A stretch of 38,929 nt of DNA, taken from NCBI GenBank assembly GCA_001783515.1, contig MFMN01000016.1, positions 1-38,929 of the forward strand, given 5' to 3'. This DNA is from Candidatus Kaiserbacteria bacterium RIFCSPLOWO2_12_FULL_50_10 (GTDB lineage: Bacteria > Patescibacteriota > Minisyncoccia > Phycocordibacterales > UBA918). The position numbers and the translations under genes were made by a program. The notes below the pieces were generated by a model. The model was not told the DNA's origin and made no database searches. It saw only the letters and a program-made list of their open reading frames with translations. Positions 10,354 to 32,731 of this stretch are shown one piece after another. Each line of letters opens with the position of its first letter. The stretch's first letter is position 1.

Positions 10354-12081
10354 ATGCAACTTACTGACGCACAAATAAAACGCTTCGTGCTCGACACCGC
10401 ACTCGTCACCCGAAAAGACGTCGACACCGCTGCAGCACTTGCGTCCGAGCGAGGGATTTCATTTGCCGATGCGCTCCGCAGCCAGGGCTCCTTAACGCAA
10501 GATGACATTCGTCGGGCAAGCGCCTACGTGCTCGGCGTACCCTACGTCTCGCTTGTAAAGCGCGCTATCGATTCGCAGGTCATGCTCCTCATGCCCGAAG
10601 CAATTGCCCGCACCTACAGCGCAATCCCCTACGCCATGACAGACGACACCGTCGAAGTTGCGCTTCTTGATCTTGCACACATCCCCGCGCTCGAAGGACG
10701 CATGCGCACAGGCGGACGCCGTATTGTGGCGCGTCTCACCGACACTGCATCCATTCAGTCAGCACTAAGCCGCTACCAACGACATCTCCACACTGCGTAC
10801 AGCGAGACCATTCGCCGCGCCGCAGACACCCTTAAGCATGGAGGAGCGCCCGAGGAAGTAGAGCGCCACGCCCGCACACTCCTCGACACGCTCATGCATC
10901 ACGCACTCACCCAAGGCGCACGCGTTATTCATATTGAGCCGGGCGAGACCTGCATGATTCGCTATCGCATCGGGACGACGCTCCATGACGCCATGGAGCT
11001 CCCGAAGCATGTGCAGCTTCCTCTTGAAGACACGGTCGCCTCACTCGCAAGGCTCCCGTCTCTTGGCGCCGTCGCGCGCGATGGCCGTTTCCGCATCACT
11101 CGCAATGGCGAACGTGTCGCCGTACGTGTCCGCACCATGCACACGCACGCTGGCACTGCCATTGCGCTCACCCTCGTGCGCGCAGGCGGACACGGCTTCA
11201 CCCTTGATGGCCTTGGTTTTCACGGCGCTCTCCTTGAAGAATTCCTCCGCGCGTCCGCAGACCCGCGCGCAAGCATACTGCTCAGCGGCCCCCTCGGCTC
11301 GGGCAAAACAACCACCCTCTATACCCTTCTCGACACGCTGCGTACTCCGGCGACCAATGTTATTACCGTTGAATCATCTATTGGGGCACCACTTACCCGT
11401 GTGCATCAAGTGAGCATTCGCCCGGACATCGGCTTCGACACGCAAGCAGCTGTCCGCGCCGCCCTCGCCCAAGATCCCGACATTATCGGCATCGACACAG
11501 AGAGCGACCCTACCGAACTCACGCACCTTCTTGCTACGGCACGTCTTCGCGCGATTCGCACTATCACGAGCGCATCCTTAGGTGCCGCCTGTGAAGCACT
11601 CGAAGTGTTCGCCAAAGCAACTGGTGACGCAACCCTTCCCTTCACGCACGTGCTCGGCGCTGCAACCGTGCGTATGCTCGGCGGAAACCGCGAGGCGTAC
11701 CACCTAAGCGCGCGCGACATGGACAATCTCCGCGATGTCGCTCGCATGCACGACATCCTGGAGGTACTCAAGGAAGAGAGAGTCATTCCGCAGAAAGCAA
11801 CCTGGAGCAGCGTTTCTTTCTATCGCGCACCGCTCGAAACGCCAGAACACGAAGTCTACACAGGCATGATCGGTGTACATGAGCTCCTCACCGTGACGCC
11901 CGAACTCCTCACCATCTCTAAAAAGCCTGACGCCTCAAACTACCTCGCCCACGCCGTCGAGCACGGCATGTTCACCCTCGTCGAAGACGCCATCATGAAA
12001 GCCGTCATGGGCATTACCACCCTTGACGAAGTCTGGCGCATCGTCGCGCTCTACTATGGTGAAAACGCACTACCGCACTAA
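10354..12081 (+). CDS. Divergent PilB/GspE-like secretion ATPase
   Basis: N-terminal T2SSE-N-like region; Walker A GPLGSGKTTTLYTLL; ALAQDPDIIGIDTESDP in the Walker B region. Internal ATG 10354 preferred. Confidence 0.75.
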   Translation: MQLTDAQIKRFVLDTALVTRKDVDTAAALASERGISFADALRSQGSLTQDDIRRASAYVLGVPYVSLVKRAIDSQVMLLMPEAIARTYSAIPYAMTDDTVEVALLDLAHIPALEGRMRTGGRRIVARLTDTASIQSALSRYQRHLHTAYSETIRRAADTLKHGGAPEEVERHARTLLDTLMHHALTQGARVIHIEPGETCMIRYRIGTTLHDAMELPKHVQLPLEDTVASLARLPSLGAVARDGRFRITRNGERVAVRVRTMHTHAGTAIALTLVRAGGHGFTLDGLGFHGALLEEFLRASADPRASILLSGPLGSGKTTTLYTLLDTLRTPATNVITVESSIGAPLTRVHQVSIRPDIGFDTQAAVRAALAQDPDIIGIDTESDPTELTHLLATARLRAIRTITSASLGAACEALEVFAKATGDATLPFTHVLGAATVRMLGGNREAYHLSARDMDNLRDVARMHDILEVLKEERVIPQKATWSSVSFYRAPLETPEHEVYTGMIGVHELLTVTPELLTISKKPDASNYLAHAVEHGMFTLVEDAIMKAVMGITTLDEVWRIVALYYGENALPH

Positions 12082-12188
12082 GCTGCGGTTTTGTTTTTTA
12101 CATCCTCAATTGCATTCGTAACGCCTTTTTGATAGAGTGCTCTCGATAGATCGTTTGCTCTTTTCATCCCCACCCCCTGGAGACCACT

Positions 12189-13295
12189 ATGACTGGTATT
12201 GTGAAAAAACTCGTACTCACGGGAGGCCCGTGTGCAGGAAAAACATCCGCCCTCTCCTTTTTGGAACAAAATCTGAGAGACAGAGGCTGGCATGTCCTTG
12301 TTGCACCAGAAATTCCAACCATGCTTATGCAGCACGGCGTACACCCAAACATGCTCAGCACGTTTCAGGAACACGTGCTCGCCATGCAGGTCGCCTTCGA
12401 AAAGGAGCTCTCTCGTGCCGCAGAAATGTTGCCGGGGGAGAAGGTGGTCATCATCTACGACAGAGGCATCATGGACCAAAAGGTCTATCTGCCGAACTAT
12501 GCCGCGTTCATCAGTCTGGTTGAAGCACAAGGCCTGAATGTCGTCGAAGTACGCGACGGTCGCTATGATGGCGTATTCCATCTACGCACGGCCGCTCACG
12601 GTGCCGAGCATGCCTACGGGAACGCAACCAATGCACACCGCCTTGAATCAGTCGAGCAAGCTCGCGCTGTTGACAAACTCACCGAGGAAGCATGGCTCGG
12701 AACGCCCCACCTGCGGATCATTCCCAACAAAGGAACATTCGCAGATAAGCTGCATCACCTCCTCAGTGAAGTGCTTCAGGCGCTTGGCGAACCCGTGCCG
12801 ATTGAGTTTGAGCGGAAGTACACCGTCCGTCTCACCGAAGCAATCCCGCCTATCCCCTCTTCGGTGCGTGTGCTCATCACGCAGGACTATCTCGTTGCGA
12901 CGAACCCTGGCGTTGTTGAGCGGGTCCGGTCACGAGGCCAGGATGCGACGCTCCTCTATTACCACACCACCAAAAAGCCCACAGGGGTGTGCGGTGAATC
13001 GGTAGAAGTGGAGCGGAGAATTTCTGAACGGGAGTATCTCGAACTTCTTGCACGCAAGGATCCGTGTCGACACACGGTTGTAAAAGAGCGGACGTGCTTT
13101 GTGTACCGCGACCAGTATTTCGAACTTGACGTGTTCGCCGACACTCGTCTGCCGCACGCGCTGCTCGAGATTGAACTGCTCAGCGAACAGCAAACGGTGG
13201 AACTTCCTTCTTTTCTCGACATCATTGAGGAAGTGACGGGGGACGCCGCCTGGTCGAATTTCAGCATCGCCCACAGGCTTGCGCAAAAGGACTAG
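12189..13295 (+). CDS. P-loop ATPase/kinase (AAA_28/NadR-like) fused to a CYTH domain
   Basis: N-terminal LTGGPCAGKTSAL; C-terminal EFERKYTVRL...VERVRSRG...EVERRIS...LEIELLS. SD GGAG 6 nt before ATG. Confidence 0.8.
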   Translation: MTGIVKKLVLTGGPCAGKTSALSFLEQNLRDRGWHVLVAPEIPTMLMQHGVHPNMLSTFQEHVLAMQVAFEKELSRAAEMLPGEKVVIIYDRGIMDQKVYLPNYAAFISLVEAQGLNVVEVRDGRYDGVFHLRTAAHGAEHAYGNATNAHRLESVEQARAVDKLTEEAWLGTPHLRIIPNKGTFADKLHHLLSEVLQALGEPVPIEFERKYTVRLTEAIPPIPSSVRVLITQDYLVATNPGVVERVRSRGQDATLLYYHTTKKPTGVCGESVEVERRISEREYLELLARKDPCRHTVVKERTCFVYRDQYFELDVFADTRLPHALLEIELLSEQQTVELPSFLDIIEEVTGDAAWSNFSIAHRLAQKD

Positions 13296-25052: not shown

Positions 25053-25313
25053 CTATCGGTAGACATCATGACTTCCAACATCAAGCAGACACGCTTGATG
25101 TTTTTTGTCATAAGAGAAGATTATACGAGTACTATAATTTACAGAAAAACTGTACGTGCTCCCTAGTCTCCCCTGCAGCTTATGAACTTTTAGTTTCTCG
25201 TGATTCTGCTCATCCCTAAAAAGCTCGATACGTTCAACAACATCATCCTGCAGTGCTGGCTCTAATTTCTTGAAACTTCGAACAAAAGATGGCGCATATA
25301 TAATTTCAACCAT
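25053..25313 (-). CDS. RelE/ParE-superfamily toxin
   Basis: MVEIIYAPSFVRSFKKLEPALQDDVVERIELF...KVHKLQGRLGSTYSFSVNYSTRIIFSY...LLDVGSHDVYR. Confidence 0.8.
   Translation of the reverse strand: MVEIIYAPSFVRSFKKLEPALQDDVVERIELFRDEQNHEKLKVHKLQGRLGSTYSFSVNYSTRIIFSYDKKHQACLLDVGSHDVYR
25077..25106 (+). terminator. Plus-strand terminator inside the minus-strand toxin gene
   Basis: AACATCAAGC-AGACAC-GCTTGATGTT followed by TTTT. Confidence 0.7.
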
Positions 25314-25317
25314 AGTG

Positions 25318-25542
25318 CTATGCATCGAGCTGAGCAGCAAGCATTCGCAGATCACCGCGAAGCCCCTTACCTTCATCTATTTCGCGCTGCGCACGAAGCA
25401 CTCGCTCAACAGCCTCGTCCTCCGCAGCTTTTATGAGCGCACGCCGAACAGCATCTGCTTTATTTGCAGCATAACCAGTTGAAACTAAGTGGTGGAGCAT
25501 CTGTTCAAGAGATGCTGAAAGTGGTACCGATATTGTCGTCAT
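25318..25542 (-). CDS. Putative ribbon-helix-helix antitoxin
   Basis: MTTISVPLSASLEQMLHHLVSTGYAANKADAVRRALIKAAEDEAVERVL; directly upstream of the toxin. Confidence 0.75.
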   Translation of the reverse strand: MTTISVPLSASLEQMLHHLVSTGYAANKADAVRRALIKAAEDEAVERVLRAQREIDEGKGLRGDLRMLAAQLDA

Positions 25543-25548
25543 GCACAC

Positions 25549-25652: not shown

Positions 25653-25716
25653 CCCGCGCAGGGCTGGCCGCCACCGCTTGTACTACTTGTAGTGCGAGCA
25701 ACCAGCCTTGCGCGGG
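25653..25716. repeat. Long hairpin overlapping the tmRNA 5' end
   Basis: CCCGCGCAGGGCTGG (25653-25667) / CCAGCCTTGCGCGGG (25702-25716), one wobble, plus inner CTTGTACTAC-TT-GTAGTGCGAG stem. Confidence 0.8.
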
Positions 25717-26112
25717 GATGACAGGCTTTGACGGTTATGGTCCGTGCGAACGGCGCGTGTCGAAGATGGTGTTGTCCTTCGTAAAAACACACCAACCCTT
25801 AATTGCAAAAGCAATCAAGAGTCCTTACGCGTCTAACGTGTTTGGATACGCTTACGCTGCGTAGGTTGAGTTTTTAACTCCCTCGCCCGTTGCGCGTTAC
25901 GCTTCGTTCGTCATATCTCGAAGCAGTGGCGTTATATCGATATGACTCGGCAGTCGCAGTGCGTTCTCACTTCGACACCTAAAAAATAGGAACTGCACTT
26001 CGCCTTCTCGTTCACTCTCCCGAAAGCGAAGTTAAGCCTTCAGAGTGTCCTACACACGTAGACACCCTCGCACACCATAATTCGGACGAGAGTTCAATTC
26101 TCTCCATCTCCA
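25714..26112 (+). ncRNA. ssrA: Transfer-messenger RNA (tmRNA)
   Basis: GGGGATG (25714-25720) pairs with CATCTCC (26105-26111); T-arm GAGAG-TTCAATT-CTCTC; tag frame KTHQPLIAKAIKSPYASNVFGYAYAA then TAG at 25862-25864. CCA not encoded. Confidence 0.93.
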
Positions 26113-26125
26113 CAACAGTAAACAC

Positions 26126-26471: not shown

Positions 26472-27218
26472 ATGACTGATTCAAACACTACTGCAGAAAC
26501 GAAGAAGGCGCTCCCTGCGTACCTCAACGTAACTAAGTTGCAGAAACTTATCGAGATCCTCTCCACGACAAGGGTGACCGTAATTACGACCGAGAGCCTT
26601 AAGGGCGAATTCGGTGCAACCGATGCCTCTGTTGCCATGGGCACACTCCGATTTCTTGATTTGATCGACGAAACTGGGAAAGCGAGGGATGCGGTACGAG
26701 GCTTCCATCTTAGTGGTGAGGAGCGAACACAGGCGGTCGCAAAGATTGTCGAGACTGCTTACGCACAACTCTTTGAGTTTGTTGTCGGAGATAAGCCCCA
26801 GAACCTAGCTCAGGACAAACTCACCAATCACTTCGTGAAGGTTTATGGTGTCGTGCCGCGAATCGCAACACCGGCGGTGCGCGCCTTCCTATTTCTTTGC
26901 GAGGAGGCTGGAATGAAAGAGAAGAGTACTGTACCGCGCGTGCAAACACCGCGCGTGAAGAAACCTAACGTGACACACACAAAGCCGACAGCGGGTTCAG
27001 TAACCAGAAATCCTCAACGATCTCCCGCTACTCATAATGCGAATGAAACGGCGATACCTTTCGCCAAAGGACAGATCTCTTTCGTGCTCCCAACAAAAGT
27101 CTTAAGCAACCCAGAGCTCATTGGAGACTACAAGGACGTTCTTACTGCGATTAATACGTTCGTGTCCAAATGTGAGCCGTTTTTGAAGGAAGACTCTCAA
27201 CCTAATGACAGCGAATAA
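26472..27218 (+). CDS. DUF5343-family protein
   Basis: YLNVTKLQKLIEILSTTRVTVITTESLKGEFGATDASVAMGTLRFLDLIDETGKA...TAYAQLFEFV resembles DUF5343. Confidence 0.7.
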   Translation: MTDSNTTAETKKALPAYLNVTKLQKLIEILSTTRVTVITTESLKGEFGATDASVAMGTLRFLDLIDETGKARDAVRGFHLSGEERTQAVAKIVETAYAQLFEFVVGDKPQNLAQDKLTNHFVKVYGVVPRIATPAVRAFLFLCEEAGMKEKSTVPRVQTPRVKKPNVTHTKPTAGSVTRNPQRSPATHNANETAIPFAKGQISFVLPTKVLSNPELIGDYKDVLTAINTFVSKCEPFLKEDSQPNDSE

Positions 27219-28173
27219 CTCACTCTCCGCTAGTAGTTGGTCTGTGTGCGAAACACAGCTAAAACACATTGTCGAAGGCGACACGGCTGAGTTCGAGTCG
27301 TTGCCTTTCTTACGGGCATGCGGAATTGTGGGTGCCGAAGTGCCACCCATTGCGAGTCCGTTGGGGCAACGGTATTACGAGGCTCGTTTCATTCGTAACG
27401 ACGATGTTGCTGCTCAGGCCGTATTACGCGACGGTTTACTGCAACACCCTGCTGTACAGGCGATACTGCAACTCCTACATGGGGTCCATAACGCAAAGCG
27501 AGATAATGCGTTGTCTGTACTTAAAAGTCGCGGTATGTGGTCTTATACTGATGAGCGACCTCTAACGAACCTGCTTTTATCGATGAACAATGCGGGCCTT
27601 GTCTCATACTCGAAAAAACACGGCTCGGTACGAGTTCTCTACAATCCTACAGAGCAACAGGAAGGAGTCCCCTCAAATATATTTATAGATCCAAAGCGAC
27701 CTTACGGGAATAAAGCATGGATGAAGCGCGTGCTGGCAGAGTGCGAAGGTCATATTCACTGGATCGACAAACATTTCATACCTACTGGTCTTGAGTATAT
27801 TTGGGAAGTCGCCGATGCAAACAAACTACAAGAGGTGACCATACTTTCTCTCTACCTGCCCGACCTAATCGGTAAGGGAGCTGTAAAGCAATATAGAGAC
27901 CTCCAAACCGAACTGGCTGCAAAAGGCATCCAGCTTCGCTGGATGGTGATAGATAGCAAACTTATTCGTGACAATCACGACAGATGGATTCTCTCAAAGA
28001 ACGAGGCTTGGAATCTTCCTGATTTAAATACCGTCATATCTGGCAATCGTTCGGAAATCACAAAGAGCATTAACGGGGCAGAAATGGAGAAGGCTTTCAT
28101 CTCCTATCTCACAAATGCAAAAGAGATAACGACCGCAAGCGTCCCCGTAGTCACTTTAGCTGCTACAGGGTAG
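27205..28173 (+). CDS. Winged-helix plus PLD-like domain protein, translationally coupled to the DUF5343 gene
   Basis: wHTH-like LTNLLLSMNNAGLVSYSKKHGSVRVLYNP; C-terminal HIHWIDKHF...LRWMVIDSKLIRDNHDRWILSKNEAWNLPDLNTVISGNRSEI. Confidence 0.55.
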   Translation: MTANNSLSASSWSVCETQLKHIVEGDTAEFESLPFLRACGIVGAEVPPIASPLGQRYYEARFIRNDDVAAQAVLRDGLLQHPAVQAILQLLHGVHNAKRDNALSVLKSRGMWSYTDERPLTNLLLSMNNAGLVSYSKKHGSVRVLYNPTEQQEGVPSNIFIDPKRPYGNKAWMKRVLAECEGHIHWIDKHFIPTGLEYIWEVADANKLQEVTILSLYLPDLIGKGAVKQYRDLQTELAAKGIQLRWMVIDSKLIRDNHDRWILSKNEAWNLPDLNTVISGNRSEITKSINGAEMEKAFISYLTNAKEITTASVPVVTLAATG

Positions 28174-28375
28174 GTTCAAACTAGTGCCTTCGGCACATAC
28201 ATTCCTGGATTCATCCACAGAATGAACATTGTGCACTATCGTCAGGTTCTAATCTCGACGACTCATTCCCTCTCAAACGGCCGCACGAGCCACTCGGAGA
28301 AATCAAAGTATTCCAGATTGGATACTCCACCATTAATCAAACAGGTTCTAAAGGAGTAAAGTAGCCTCCACCCTT

Positions 28376-28404
28376 AAAAAGCGCCTTATCGAAGGCGCTT
28401 TTTT
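28376..28404. terminator. Bidirectional terminator
   Basis: AAAAAGCGCCTT-ATCG-AAGGCGCTTTTTT. Confidence 0.88.
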
Positions 28405-28415
28405 GTAACTATGTC

Positions 28416-29543
28416 CTACGCGTGTGATTGCCACACATCGAGCATTGCTTCGTATTCGTTGATGTGGACGACGGCGATTTTTGTGGTGCTTGTTGCGGCG
28501 CTTAGGAGTATGTCGTTTTGAGTATCGGCGTGTGCTGTGTTTTTGTTTGTGTCGAGTTTGATGCCGATGCCTGCCAGCGGCGAAAGTATGCGCTCGCGCA
28601 TTACAGTCGAGCGTTCAGACACGGTGCCAGAAAATATAATGAGATCGGCGCCGCCGAGCGTTGCCATTGCGCCGCCGATGTAGTGACGGACGCGGTGTGC
28701 GTAGGCGTCGAGTGCTTCTTTTGCTTCTAGATTGCCGTTTTCTTCGAGTGTTATGAGTGTGCGAATGTCATCAGAACCGCCAAGACCTTTGAGTCCTGAT
28801 TCGGTATTAAGGTACGAGCGCATTTGCACTGGCGTCATCCCCTTCGCTTCCATGAGCGTAAGTACGGCACCAGGATCAATAGCCCCAACACGCGTTGCCA
28901 TGAGGAGCCCGTCGAGCGGCGTTGTGCCCATTGAGGTATCGAGAGACTCTCCGTCACGCACAGCGGTCACACTTCCGCCGCCGCCGAGGTGACACACAAT
29001 TACTCGAGACGGAAGCGCGTCGCAAAGCAAAGTTCCCCGCGAGAGCGCAGATGAAATTGCTAGCCCGTGATACCCAAACTTCCGAATATCATAGACGTCC
29101 GCATCGCTGCGCGGAATTGCATAGCGCGCAATGTATTCAGGAATCGTTGCATGAAAGGCGGTGTCGGATATGCCAACAAACGCTGCCTGCGGGAGCATTT
29201 CCTGCAAGCGTACTAATTCCTCGTGCTGTGCATGCACATGGAGCGGCGCGGTGTGTTCGGCCTCGACGAGGTGCACAAAATATTCATCGCTAATGACTTG
29301 ATGTTCTTGAAAATATCGCCCTGGCGCAACAATTCGCATCAGCACCGTATCTATATCGGCAGGTTGTACCTGCTGCGCTTCGAGTAACGCAAGAAACGTT
29401 TGATGCGCGCGGTCATACGCTTCCACAGAAATCTCACTCACCTCATAATGCGCCGCGACACGCACCTGAAATGCACCACCATTCACCTTATCCGCAAGCG
29501 CATATTTCTTTGAGGCACTCCCAATGTTCGCAAGAAGAATCAT
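28416..29543 (-). CDS. ackA: Acetate kinase
   Basis: ILLANIGSASKKYAL, CHLGGGGSVTAVRDGESLDTSMGTTPLDGLLMATRVGAIDPG, IFSGTVSERS. Confidence 0.92.
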   Translation of the reverse strand: MILLANIGSASKKYALADKVNGGAFQVRVAAHYEVSEISVEAYDRAHQTFLALLEAQQVQPADIDTVLMRIVAPGRYFQEHQVISDEYFVHLVEAEHTAPLHVHAQHEELVRLQEMLPQAAFVGISDTAFHATIPEYIARYAIPRSDADVYDIRKFGYHGLAISSALSRGTLLCDALPSRVIVCHLGGGGSVTAVRDGESLDTSMGTTPLDGLLMATRVGAIDPGAVLTLMEAKGMTPVQMRSYLNTESGLKGLGGSDDIRTLITLEENGNLEAKEALDAYAHRVRHYIGGAMATLGGADLIIFSGTVSERSTVMRERILSPLAGIGIKLDTNKNTAHADTQNDILLSAATSTTKIAVVHINEYEAMLDVWQSHA

Positions 29544-29647
29544 GACACCATACTACCATTACTTCAAAAAATTGCTGTCACAGAGCCTGCGTTCAAGAAT
29601 AAGCTTTTAGGGCGCCCGTGCTATAGTACGAAGAATATACACAATCT

Positions 29648-30301
29648 ATGCACATCATTCCAACCATTAAAGACCCGTATAGTGATTTTGACACTACAAC
29701 GCATACCAAGCAAGGTAGTATTGCGCGCGCACTTACCTTAAACGACATCTTCTTCTTGGGGGGTATTTCATTTGTGGGTGTTGTTATTACACTGTTTATT
29801 GTTACCTTCATCGAAGGCGCTACCGTTGAACATGTTGGTATTGCGTTTATGATTCGACTTTTGGCACGCGCAGTATTTGCGCTCCCCATTGGTACCTTTT
29901 TTGATAAACATAAAGGATATACGGACGAGATTTGGGGATTGTGTTTTTCTACATCTCTCTTTGGGATTCTTCATGTAGCACTTGGATTTTCAACGAACAT
30001 CTGGCAGTTGTACGTTATCATGTTCTTCCTTGGTGTTCTTGAGGCAGCCAATGCATCTTCGTGGAGAATTCTTTTTTTTGGAAGTATATCAAGGGCATTC
30101 CTTGGAAAAATTACTGGCGTCTACGATATGTTCTACTCGGTAGGAACGGCACTTTGCTTAGTGCTTGGCGGATATGTTGCCGCAAGCATTGGATACGACA
30201 ACACCGTTATCGTCGGAGGATTATTTATTATGGTTGGAGGTTTTCTTCCTCTCTTAATCCGCGGATATTTGTCCAAAAATGAGCTTACGGGTACTAAGTA
30301 G
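29648..30301 (+). CDS. Half-size MFS-like transporter (about 6 TM)
   Basis: RLLARAVFALPIGTFFDKHKGYTDE loop and hydrophobic helices; only 217 aa. Confidence 0.65.
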   Translation: MHIIPTIKDPYSDFDTTTHTKQGSIARALTLNDIFFLGGISFVGVVITLFIVTFIEGATVEHVGIAFMIRLLARAVFALPIGTFFDKHKGYTDEIWGLCFSTSLFGILHVALGFSTNIWQLYVIMFFLGVLEAANASSWRILFFGSISRAFLGKITGVYDMFYSVGTALCLVLGGYVAASIGYDNTVIVGGLFIMVGGFLPLLIRGYLSKNELTGTK

Positions 30302-30316
30302 GAATGCACACTTCAC

Positions 30317-30350
30317 AAAACCCCTCCATTAGTGGAGGGGTTTGTCTTTT
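30317..30350. terminator. Bidirectional terminator
   Basis: AAAACCCCTCCA-TTAG-TGGAGGGGTTT. Confidence 0.85.
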
Positions 30351-30355
30351 GTTTT

Positions 30356-32731
30356 CTACTGAGGACTCTTAGCTCGTGGCGTCCATGTCCAGGCGTCGAT
30401 TTCTTCGGGGTCGGTGCCGTTTTGGATGATGTAGGCGCGGTGGTCAGTAAGCTTTTTGCGATACTGCTTGATGAGTTCGTCTGCCTTGGTGCGATCGACA
30501 ACTCCTGCCTGCACCATTTCTTCCCAAACTTCTATGGCGAGGCTATAGCGGTCGGTGTTGTTGCGGATATGCATGTCGAACGGGGTTGTCGTTGAACCGT
30601 TTTCTTCGTAGCCGTGGACTAAGAAGCGTCGTCCACTCCCGTTGCAGGCGTACTCAAAGAGCATTTGCTTGAGTGTTTGTGGGTAGCCATGGAAGTTGAA
30701 AAGGACTGGCTTGTCATGCGTGAAATAGTCGTTGAAATCTACATGAGGCATAACACATTCGCCGGAGCCGATACCGAGCGCGTTGAGCGTGATAATGTTC
30801 ACAAAACGTATGCGTACATTTGGTGTTTCTTGCTTCACAATGTCGAGTGCTGCGAGACCTTCCTTGGTGAGGTAATCGCCGATGGTTGCGATGACAATGT
30901 CGGGGCGGTCGTCGGAGGCGAAGTCCCACGTCATAATGCCTGCGTCGACTGCTTTCTGCGCTTCCGCGGGCGTGAGCCAGCGTGGTTCAAGGGTCTTCCC
31001 TGCGGTGATGATGTTGATTTCTTGTGTCGACGCGAGACATCGCCGCAGGCACGCGAGCGTTGTGTTGCCGTCGGGTGGGTAGTAAGCATTCACGAAGCAG
31101 CCTGGGCGGTTGAGCATGTCGTCGACGAAGCCGGGGTTTTGGTGTGAGAATCCGTTATGGTCTTGTCGCCAGCCGGACGAGGTGAGGATATAGTTGAGCG
31201 ACGGAACTTTGCCACGCCACGAGACGCTGCGGGCGATTTTCAAAAACTTTGCATATTGGTCAACCATCGAAACGACGATTTGAATGAATGCTTCGTAGGA
31301 GGCGAAGATGCCATGGCGCCCCGTGAGTACATAGCCCATGTACATGCCTTGGAGGGTGTGCTCGGAGAGCATTTCCATGACTCTGCCGTTTGGTGCAAGG
31401 TCTTTATCCCAACTTTCGCGCTTCCCTACCCATGCACGCGCGGTTTTGGTAAATACATCGTCAAGTTTGTTTGAATAAGTTTCATCAGGAGAAAAGAGAC
31501 GGAAGTTTTTTGCGTCGTTATTGCGTGCAAAGACTTCGGTGAGGTACGCACCTGCGCGACGCATTGATGATGAGCCTACTGTTCCTGGAACAGTCGCATC
31601 TTCGGTGAACGTGGCGATGTCGGGAAGTTCGAGTGGCGTATATGCGGGCGAGCCGCCACGCGCATGTTTACTTGCGCCCATGCGAAGTTCGGCAGGCGGA
31701 ATTATCGCGCGAATATCTTCGGCGAATGCGCCCTTGGTAAAGAGCTCGGGGAAATTATATGAGCGAAGCCAGGTTTCGAGCGCGCTAAGATGTGCTGGAT
31801 TTGTTGCTGCTTCTTTTGCAATGACTTGGTGCGACAAATGATTTCCTTCGAGCTTTTCGCCGTCGAGCTCAGCAATACCTGTCCAGCCTTTGGGTGTGCG
31901 CAAGATAATCATTGGCCATTTGGGCACTTCTACTACTTGTACTTCGCTACTTCTCGCAGCGTCTTGGATTGCATGAATCTGCACATGCGCCGCCTTAAGC
32001 GTTGCTTGCATCACGGCGTATACGTCGCGCGGATCTGACGCATCAACAATGTAGACTGTGTAGCCATAGCCGGTGAAGAGGTGGGCAAGTTCGGTATCGG
32101 TCATTCGCCCGTAGATTGTCGGGCCAGAAATTTTGTAGCCGTTCACATGCACAATCGGGAGCACAGCGCCTGAAGTTTTTGGGTCAACGAATTTATTACA
32201 GTGCCACGCGGTTGCCGTTGGACCTGTTTCTGCTTCGCCGTCACCGATGAGTACAGCCGTTACGAGGTTGGGGTTATCAAGCACCGTGCCATAAGCGGTT
32301 GCGAGCGCATAGCCGAGTTCGCCACCCTCAAGAATAACGCCAGGTGCCTCAGGGTTGCTGTGTGAAGGATACCCATACGGCCAGCTGAAATTTTTACACA
32401 AGTGTGCAATACCTTCTGCAGACACCGGAAGGTTTACATCGACATCGCCAAGCGAACCTTCAAGGAAAAGGTTTGCTTGGAGCGCAGGAAATCCATGTCC
32501 CGGGCCGAGCACAAACATCATTTCTTGCTCTTTTTCCGTAATGAGCGCGTTGAGTTGTGCATAGGTAAAATTAATCCCCGGGCACGTTCCCCAGTGCCCT
32601 AAAAGGCGCGGCTTAATGTCAGTGTGCGCAAGCGGCTTTTCGAGCAGCGTATTGTCGCGCAAATAAATCTGCGCCGCAGCAAGATAGTTCGTCGCACGAA
32701 CGTACCGTTTGAGAGCATCGATAGTTGTCAT
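30356..32731 (-). CDS. xfp: Phosphoketolase (Xfp family)
   Basis: LLGHWGTCPGINFTYAQLNALI, VLGPGHGFPALQANLFLEGS, LIGDGEAETGPTATAWH, NGYKISGPTIYGR, SSGWRQDHNGFSHQNPGFVD. Confidence 0.97.
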   Translation of the reverse strand: MTTIDALKRYVRATNYLAAAQIYLRDNTLLEKPLAHTDIKPRLLGHWGTCPGINFTYAQLNALITEKEQEMMFVLGPGHGFPALQANLFLEGSLGDVDVNLPVSAEGIAHLCKNFSWPYGYPSHSNPEAPGVILEGGELGYALATAYGTVLDNPNLVTAVLIGDGEAETGPTATAWHCNKFVDPKTSGAVLPIVHVNGYKISGPTIYGRMTDTELAHLFTGYGYTVYIVDASDPRDVYAVMQATLKAAHVQIHAIQDAARSSEVQVVEVPKWPMIILRTPKGWTGIAELDGEKLEGNHLSHQVIAKEAATNPAHLSALETWLRSYNFPELFTKGAFAEDIRAIIPPAELRMGASKHARGGSPAYTPLELPDIATFTEDATVPGTVGSSSMRRAGAYLTEVFARNNDAKNFRLFSPDETYSNKLDDVFTKTARAWVGKRESWDKDLAPNGRVMEMLSEHTLQGMYMGYVLTGRHGIFASYEAFIQIVVSMVDQYAKFLKIARSVSWRGKVPSLNYILTSSGWRQDHNGFSHQNPGFVDDMLNRPGCFVNAYYPPDGNTTLACLRRCLASTQEINIITAGKTLEPRWLTPAEAQKAVDAGIMTWDFASDDRPDIVIATIGDYLTKEGLAALDIVKQETPNVRIRFVNIITLNALGIGSGECVMPHVDFNDYFTHDKPVLFNFHGYPQTLKQMLFEYACNGSGRRFLVHGYEENGSTTTPFDMHIRNNTDRYSLAIEVWEEMVQAGVVDRTKADELIKQYRKKLTDHRAYIIQNGTDPEEIDAWTWTPRAKSPQ

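What the first reader, a model, noticed from the sequence alone, without database searches (positions are those of the whole stretch)
26472..28173. DUF5343 + wHTH/PLD-like two-gene cassette downstream of tmRNA: candidate defence or mobile module
Seen: two plus-strand ORFs overlap by 14 bp and form one unit between the tmRNA and a strong terminator (28376-28404). The first resembles DUF5343; the second combines a winged-helix-like segment with a C-terminal HDRWI...N..SEI pattern resembling a PLD-superfamily half site. TAAAAT lies 6 nt before the first ATG. Known: ssrA loci are frequent island integration sites. Inference: a sensor/regulator plus nuclease-like effector system. No integrase or clear att duplication was seen.
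Basis: partly seen in the sequence, partly recalled or inferred. Interest (0 to 1): 0.7.

Follow-up and report, generated by a model that had tools for sequence, protein, structure and literature searches.

The report
Two-gene defence-like cassette beside ssrA
A tiny bacterium carries a two-gene cassette, inserted right at the end of its tmRNA gene and missing from its closest relative, whose second protein joins DNA-binding domains to a phospholipase-D-like domain that is also attached to several known antiviral proteins in bacteria and archaea, so it is probably a small, movable immune or toxin system, though no activity has been shown.

Summary
Gene A (26472-27218) passes the Pfam DUF5343 cut-off and matches PADLOC candidate PDC-M34A. 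Gene B (27205-28173) overlaps A by 14 bp, has no family match of its own, and is predicted to be winged-helix segments followed by a phospholipase-D fold. In a same-genus genome tmRNA runs straight into the ackA terminator, so A+B lies in a ~2.25-kb insertion exactly at the 3' end of ssrA. Full-length relatives of B, each preceded by an adjacent A-like gene, occur sporadically in Bacillota, Methanosarcinia, an Asgard MAG and a 'Ferroglobus' MAG; some sit in defence neighbourhoods. The B C-terminal module (W-[IV]-D-K-x-F...H-D-R...N-x-P...G-x-x-S/A-E) is also fused to GmrSD_N+HNH, ORF6N (PADLOC PDC-S05), BrxL and a UPF1-like helicase. DUF5343 in other Patescibacteria pairs with a HEPN_Swt1 protein or a DpnII/MboI-type nuclease. 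Best reading: a sensor/adaptor plus PLD-fold effector conflict module; nuclease activity is inferred, and the D of the HKD motif is not conserved. Homology between A of the window and the other A proteins is weak. New variant of a known kind.

The parts
25714..26113 (+). ssrA (tmRNA); its 3' end CTCCAC (26108-26113) is the left boundary of the insertion
   Evidence: ARAGORN and Rfam; aligned with sibling genome L074
26114..28371 (.). about 2.25-kb insertion absent from the same-genus genome G732; ends in a second CTCCAC copy (28366-28371)
   Evidence: BLASTN: window 25710-26113 maps to L074 11295-11696 and 28366-29564 to 11691-12887; junction alignment
26472..27218 (+). gene A: DUF5343 protein (248 aa), predicted helical N-terminal part, disordered linker about 150-215, C-terminal strand-helix motif
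   Evidence: PF17278 E 1.7e-8; PADLOC PDC-M34A E 4.4e-10; structure model poor, pLDDT 41.6
27205..28173 (+). gene B: winged-helix plus PLD-fold protein (322 aa)
   Evidence: full-length homologues in 7 other loci; AF2 pLDDT 80.7, pTM 0.51; Foldseek TrmBL2, MITD1, NucT
27205..27645 (+). B N-terminal part, about aa 1-147: two winged-helix-like segments (second about aa 82-147)
   Evidence: AF2 secondary structure H82-90, H99-108, H118-129, E133-136, E141-144
27676..28122 (+). B C-terminal PLD-like module, about aa 158-306: W186-I-D188-K189-H-F191, H258-D259-R260-W261, N270-x-P272, G280-x-x-S-E284
   Evidence: conservation over 45 unique homologues: H258 45/45, D188 45/45, P272 45/45, R260 44/45, N270 44/45, G280 44/45, E284 43/45; position 265 variable
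28325..28377 (+). two near-identical 12-mers CTCCACCATTAA (28325) and CTCCACCCTTAA (28366), resembling the tmRNA 3' end of the sibling (CTCCACCATAAAAAG)
   Evidence: repeat scan D18; weak, CTCCACC alone is not rarer than chance in the window
28376..28403 (.). terminator hairpin, ancestral terminator between ssrA and ackA
   Evidence: inverted repeat I12; directly follows ssrA in L074

Best explanation
A and B form a horizontally acquired two-gene conflict module, most likely anti-phage or anti-plasmid, inserted at the 3' end of ssrA. B is the effector: N-terminal winged-helix segments bind nucleic acid, and its C-terminal PLD-fold module (H-D-R motif) probably pairs with a second B subunit, as single-motif PLD nucleases do, to form a phosphodiesterase site that cuts nucleic acid. 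A (DUF5343) is the partner that senses the trigger and holds or recruits B, the role it would also play next to HEPN_Swt1 and DpnII/MboI-type nucleases. Shown: pair, insertion, predicted fold, conservation, shared module. Inferred: cleavage, dimerisation, sensing, defence.
For: Absent from the same-genus genome, boundary exactly at the ssrA 3' end. B plus an adjacent upstream A-like gene (gap -23 to +16 bp) in 8 further loci: L013, L014, L015, L016, L017, L049, L082, L083. Rare: 1 of 345 genomes in the order of L016, 3 of 238 in the class of L014, none other of 384 in the window's class. Neighbours: C5-methylase, HATPase and Z1 after L017, HsdM-like protein beside L082, two serine recombinases before L016. 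B proteins form one clade with the window (98/90). Module fused to GmrSD_N+HNH, ORF6N/PDC-S05, BrxL, UPF1-like helicase. DUF5343 pairs with HEPN_Swt1 or DpnII-MboI. PLD fold. PMC12839542 reports 1030 of 2913 type-1 BREX BrxL proteins with a C-terminal 'HKD-endoDNase' with K to R.
Against: No experiment. The D of HKD is not conserved (K 21, E 14, D 5 of 45), so catalysis is uncertain. The best Foldseek hit is TrmBL2, a non-enzymatic DNA-binding protein. An HMM of the other A proteins does not find A of the window, and they have no Pfam DUF5343 match. No relatives in the phage, plasmid or viral contig collections with full-length B. Only one sibling genome is available, so a deletion there is possible though less likely.
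Confidence: 0.5

Rival explanations
1. B is a TrmB-like transcription regulator: winged helices bind an operator and the PLD-like domain binds a small ligand; A is an associated regulator, and the pair has no effector activity.
For: Best structural matches are TrmBL2 and TrmB, with the same order of winged helix and PLD-like fold; two winged-helix segments in B; A proteins also look winged-helix-like.
Against: No Pfam TrmB match. A strictly conserved H-D-R/N-P/G-E pattern that a mere ligand-binding fold would not need. The module is reused in GmrSD, BrxL, ORF6N and helicase proteins, and the pair is rare and mobile.
Confidence: 0.17
2. Toxin-antitoxin pair: B is a toxin held by A, and the cassette maintains itself; any defence is a by-product.
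For: Two short overlapping genes, A before B, sporadic distribution and an insertion lacking other genes; DUF5343 elsewhere sits beside HEPN_Swt1 proteins, HEPN being a common toxin fold.
Against: B is large with its own DNA-binding segments; the same module sits in restriction-type multidomain proteins rather than in known toxins.
Confidence: 0.18
3. The PLD-like module is a non-catalytic binding domain (as in MITD1), used to tether defence proteins to a nucleic acid or lipid; B is an adaptor.
For: MIT_C (PF16565) is the nearest Pfam family: 9 of 20 module sequences match at E up to 1, best E 3e-4; MITD1 is among the Foldseek hits; GmrSD fusions already carry an HNH nuclease; third HKD position variable.
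Against: Very strict conservation of H, R, N and E; a published analysis treats the BrxL version as a nuclease (PMC12839542).
Confidence: 0.15

Closest known systems
PADLOC candidate PDC-M34 (DUF5343 plus HEPN_Swt1)
   Same: First gene: DUF5343, PDC-M34A E 4.4e-10; two adjacent genes on one strand
   Different: The HEPN RNase-like partner is replaced by the winged-helix plus PLD-like protein
BrxL with C-terminal 'HKD-endoDNase' (K to R), type 1 BREX
   Same: L030 and L035 carry a BrxL-type N-terminal part followed by the same module family as B
   Different: B has winged helices instead of the BrxL ATPase, and no BREX genes are adjacent
PADLOC candidate PDC-S05 (ORF6N proteins)
   Same: C-terminal half is the same module (L018: PDC-S05 E 1.7e-65)
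   Different: N-terminal ORF6N DNA-binding domain and single gene; B has winged helices and a partner gene
GmrSD-type (DUF262) restriction proteins with a C-terminal extension
   Same: Same C-terminal module (L002, L008-L010, L024)
   Different: No GmrSD_N or HNH domain in B
TrmB family regulators
   Same: Winged helix plus PLD-like fold (TrmBL2, Foldseek E 3e-6)
   Different: No sequence match to TrmB; conserved HDR/N-P/G-E residues; paired with A
MITD1 / MIT_C
   Same: PLD-like fold; weak Pfam matches of related modules
   Different: Window B itself has no MIT_C match; no MIT domain; prokaryotic

Membership tests
DUF5343 (PF17278) | Score above Pfam gathering cut-off (27 bits) | tested here: met
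   35.3 bits, E 1.7e-8; independent HMM 4e-10
PDC-M34 | M34A (DUF5343) component | tested here: met
   PDLC04589 E 4.4e-10
PDC-M34 | M34B (HEPN_Swt1) partner | tested here: not met
   B has no PADLOC or Pfam match; L003-L005 partners do
PLD superfamily | PLD fold | tested here: met
   Foldseek of the AF2 model: PLD3, NucT, Zucchini, MITD1, FAM83-type hits at prob 1.00; a predicted model, not a solved structure
PLD superfamily | H-x-K-x4-D catalytic motif | tested here: not met
   H-x-R, and the D position is K in the window and variable in the family
PLD nuclease | Hydrolysis of nucleic acid | not testable with these tools
   needs biochemistry
BrxL-HKD module family | Sequence homology of the C-terminal module | tested here: met
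   B of the window finds the L030 and L035 modules at 4e-21 and 6e-20; Pfam BrxL domains in L030. That these equal the published BrxL-HKD proteins was not tested directly
PDC-S05 (ORF6N) | N-terminal ORF6N domain | tested here: not met
   no ORF6N match in B
TrmB regulators | Pfam TrmB family match | tested here: not met
   no match at E up to 1
MIT_C (PF16565) | Score above cut-off (25 bits) | tested here: not met
   no match for the window module; 9 of 20 relatives match with best E 3e-4, scores not shown
Integrative element at ssrA | Insertion boundary at the tmRNA 3' end | tested here: met
Integrative element at ssrA | Flanking att direct repeat | tested here: inconclusive
   6-bp CTCCAC at both ends; short, 7-mer not rarer than chance window-wide
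Integrative element at ssrA | Own integrase | tested here: not met
   only A and B in the insertion; genome has one tyrosine recombinase hit (C14) and one serine recombinase (C18) elsewhere

The most novel reading that the evidence does not exclude
A previously undescribed two-gene immune system, winged-helix/PLD effector plus an A partner, shared by Patescibacteria, Bacillota, Methanosarcinia and Asgard archaea. It would use one member of an exchangeable H-D-R PLD module that evolution plugs into GmrSD, BrxL, ORF6N and helicase proteins, with a catalytic site that does without the HKD aspartate, while DUF5343-type partners swap between HEPN, DpnII/MboI-type and PLD effectors.
Probability: 0.35. 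Interest if true: 0.68.

Novelty: new variant of a known kind. Interest (0 to 1): 0.52.

Why it matters
It links a DUF of unknown role (DUF5343) to three different nuclease-type partners and shows that one PLD-like module recurs in several separately described defence proteins. That gives a directly testable prediction: the module is the common effector and DUF5343 the common switch. It also documents immune-type cargo gained at ssrA in a streamlined patescibacterial genome, a group whose defences are poorly known.

Tried and rejected
Structure of A: AF2 model too poor to interpret (pLDDT 41.6), its Foldseek hits discarded. PDB sequence searches with B, the two-row module alignment, the 20-row module alignment and L011 gave only chance-like hits. 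No relatives in phages, plasmids or viral contigs by full-length B; one helicase fusion on a Leptolinea plasmid by the module. ssrA as a general hotspot in the family: downstream genes differ among relatives but no shared defence cargo was recognised, not pursued. GC content does not mark the insertion as foreign (0.47 against 0.48-0.51). Claiming that all A proteins are DUF5343: rejected, profile comparison is weak (probability 32-43%; 33-71%, the highest only when the window A is in the profile). Papers: none holds 'DUF5343'; the Menshen paper said to report BrxL-HKD is not held. Errors without data.

Full report
Observation. The window holds tmRNA at 25714-26113 followed by ORF A 26472-27218 and ORF B 27205-28173, overlapping by 14 bp. 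A passes the Pfam DUF5343 cut-off and matches PADLOC PDC-M34A. B has no match in Pfam, PADLOC, NCBIfam or PDB sequences. The genome is 819 kb and 95% complete. It is inferred to be Patescibacteria because a same-phylum genome, G511/L009, carries the same protein as the Ca. Woesebacteria chromosome locus L053.

Insertion at ssrA. In the only other genome of the genus held (G732, ackA 83% identical) window 25710-26113 aligns to L074 11295-11696 and window 28366-29564 to 11691-12887. The sibling tmRNA runs into CTCCACCATAAAAAGCGCC, the terminator shared with convergent ackA; the window has CTCCAC|AACAG... at the left and ...CTCCACC|CTTAAAAAGCGCC at the right. So about 2.25 kb, holding only A and B, sits exactly at the end of ssrA. 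Insertion is more likely than deletion in the sibling because tmRNA is separated from its terminator in the window, but one sibling cannot prove it. The 6-bp flanking repeat is suggestive only. No integrase is inside.

Relatives of B. One scan of 85,000 genomes found 46 loci. Full-length relatives of B: L013 (Ferroglobus MAG, 4.2-kb contig, assignment uncertain), L014 (Methanococcoides alaskense), L015 (Gemmiger), L016 (Massiliimalia), L017 (Bacillota MAG), L049 (Thorarchaeota MAG, N-terminal part divergent) and L082 (Methanosarcinia); L083 holds a B cut at a contig end. Each is preceded, on the same strand and within -23 to +16 bp, by a 235-297-aa gene with a similar plan: winged-helix-like start, linker, strand-helix end. 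The pair is rare in each group. L017 continues into a C5-methylase, HATPase and Z1 protein; L082 faces an HsdM-like protein; L016 follows two serine recombinases. On a tree of the C-terminal modules all eight pair-type B proteins, window included, form one group (98/90), though the window branch is long.

The C-terminal module. The other loci share only B residues from about 155 onward. Their N-terminal parts include GmrSD_N with HNH (L002, L046), GmrSD_N (L024), ORF6N (L018, PADLOC PDC-S05 E 1.7e-65), BrxL_N+BrxL_ATPase (L030; L035 looks the same), a UPF1-like SF1 helicase (plasmid L012) and TPR repeats (L036). Conserved in 43-45 of 45 unique sequences: D188, K189, F191, H258, D259, R260, N270, P272, G280, E284; the position of the HKD aspartate is not conserved. 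The AF2 model (pLDDT 80.7) matches TrmBL2, FAM83-type (BJ-TSA-9), MITD1, PLD3, NucT and Zucchini. The nearest Pfam family is MIT_C, matched weakly by 9 of 20 module sequences but not by the window. A 2026 BREX study reports that 1030 of 2913 type-1 BrxL proteins end in an HKD-type DNase with lysine replaced by arginine (PMC12839542); the L030 and L035 modules are probably the same kind, not tested directly.

Partner gene. In other Patescibacteria DUF5343 is followed by a Swt1-like HEPN protein (L003-L005, PDC-M34B) or a DpnII/MboI-type nuclease (L006). This points to DUF5343 as a common partner of different effectors. The A proteins of the other B pairs are not recognised as DUF5343 by Pfam, and profile comparison is weak though collinear; the partner relation rests on position, size and plan.

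Mechanism. Shown: gene pair, insertion, predicted fold, conserved residues, shared module, neighbours. Inferred: A senses and controls; B binds nucleic acid by its winged helices and cuts through a paired PLD site. From general knowledge, single-motif PLD nucleases such as NucT act as dimers, TrmB-type PLD-like domains bind sugars, and MITD1 binds lipid without catalysis; these are the basis of the rivals.

Verdict. A real, mobile, probably defence-related two-gene module; new combination of known parts; function untested.

Noticed in passing
L074:13436-15579 (sibling G732), corresponding to window 29564-30375: Between ackA and the phosphoketolase gene the sibling has an AAA_21/AAA_15 ATPase plus DUF4276 pair (PADLOC HEC-01/AriA-like), where the window has an MFS-type gene and little else: a second variable defence-like spot 2 kb away.
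   Followed up: partly
window 25053-25548 (-): Overlapping small genes resembling a ParE/HigB/YafQ-type toxin with a short antitoxin-like gene just upstream of ssrA; the smpB-ssrA interval shows no DNA match to the sibling.
   Followed up: partly
window 26108-26115: The tmRNA 3' end reads CTCCAC|AA, while the sibling encodes CTCCACCA; the encoded CCA seems to have been lost at the insertion boundary.
   Followed up: partly
L030:2572-5101, L035:4609-7134: Bathyarchaeota BrxL whose Lon-like end is replaced by the HDR PLD module, after a large protein with a DNA-methylase-like segment and before a JAB-type protein.
   Followed up: partly
L012:1866-5489 (AP024711.1, Leptolinea plasmid): 1208-aa SF1 (AAA_11/AAA_12) helicase carrying a divergent copy of the module at its C-terminus.
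   Followed up: no
L006:774-2037: DUF5343 gene paired with a DpnII-MboI-type nuclease-like protein (PADLOC Aga_Helical-REase match).
   Followed up: no
L013:191-1552: A third gene before the A+B pair, 454 aa with weak winged-helix matches, overlapping the A gene; serine recombinase fragments occur at both ends of the 4.2-kb contig.
   Followed up: no
window 28325-28336 and 28366-28377: Two tmRNA-end-like 12-mers 41 bp apart at the right end of the insertion, possibly traces of two integration events.
   Followed up: partly
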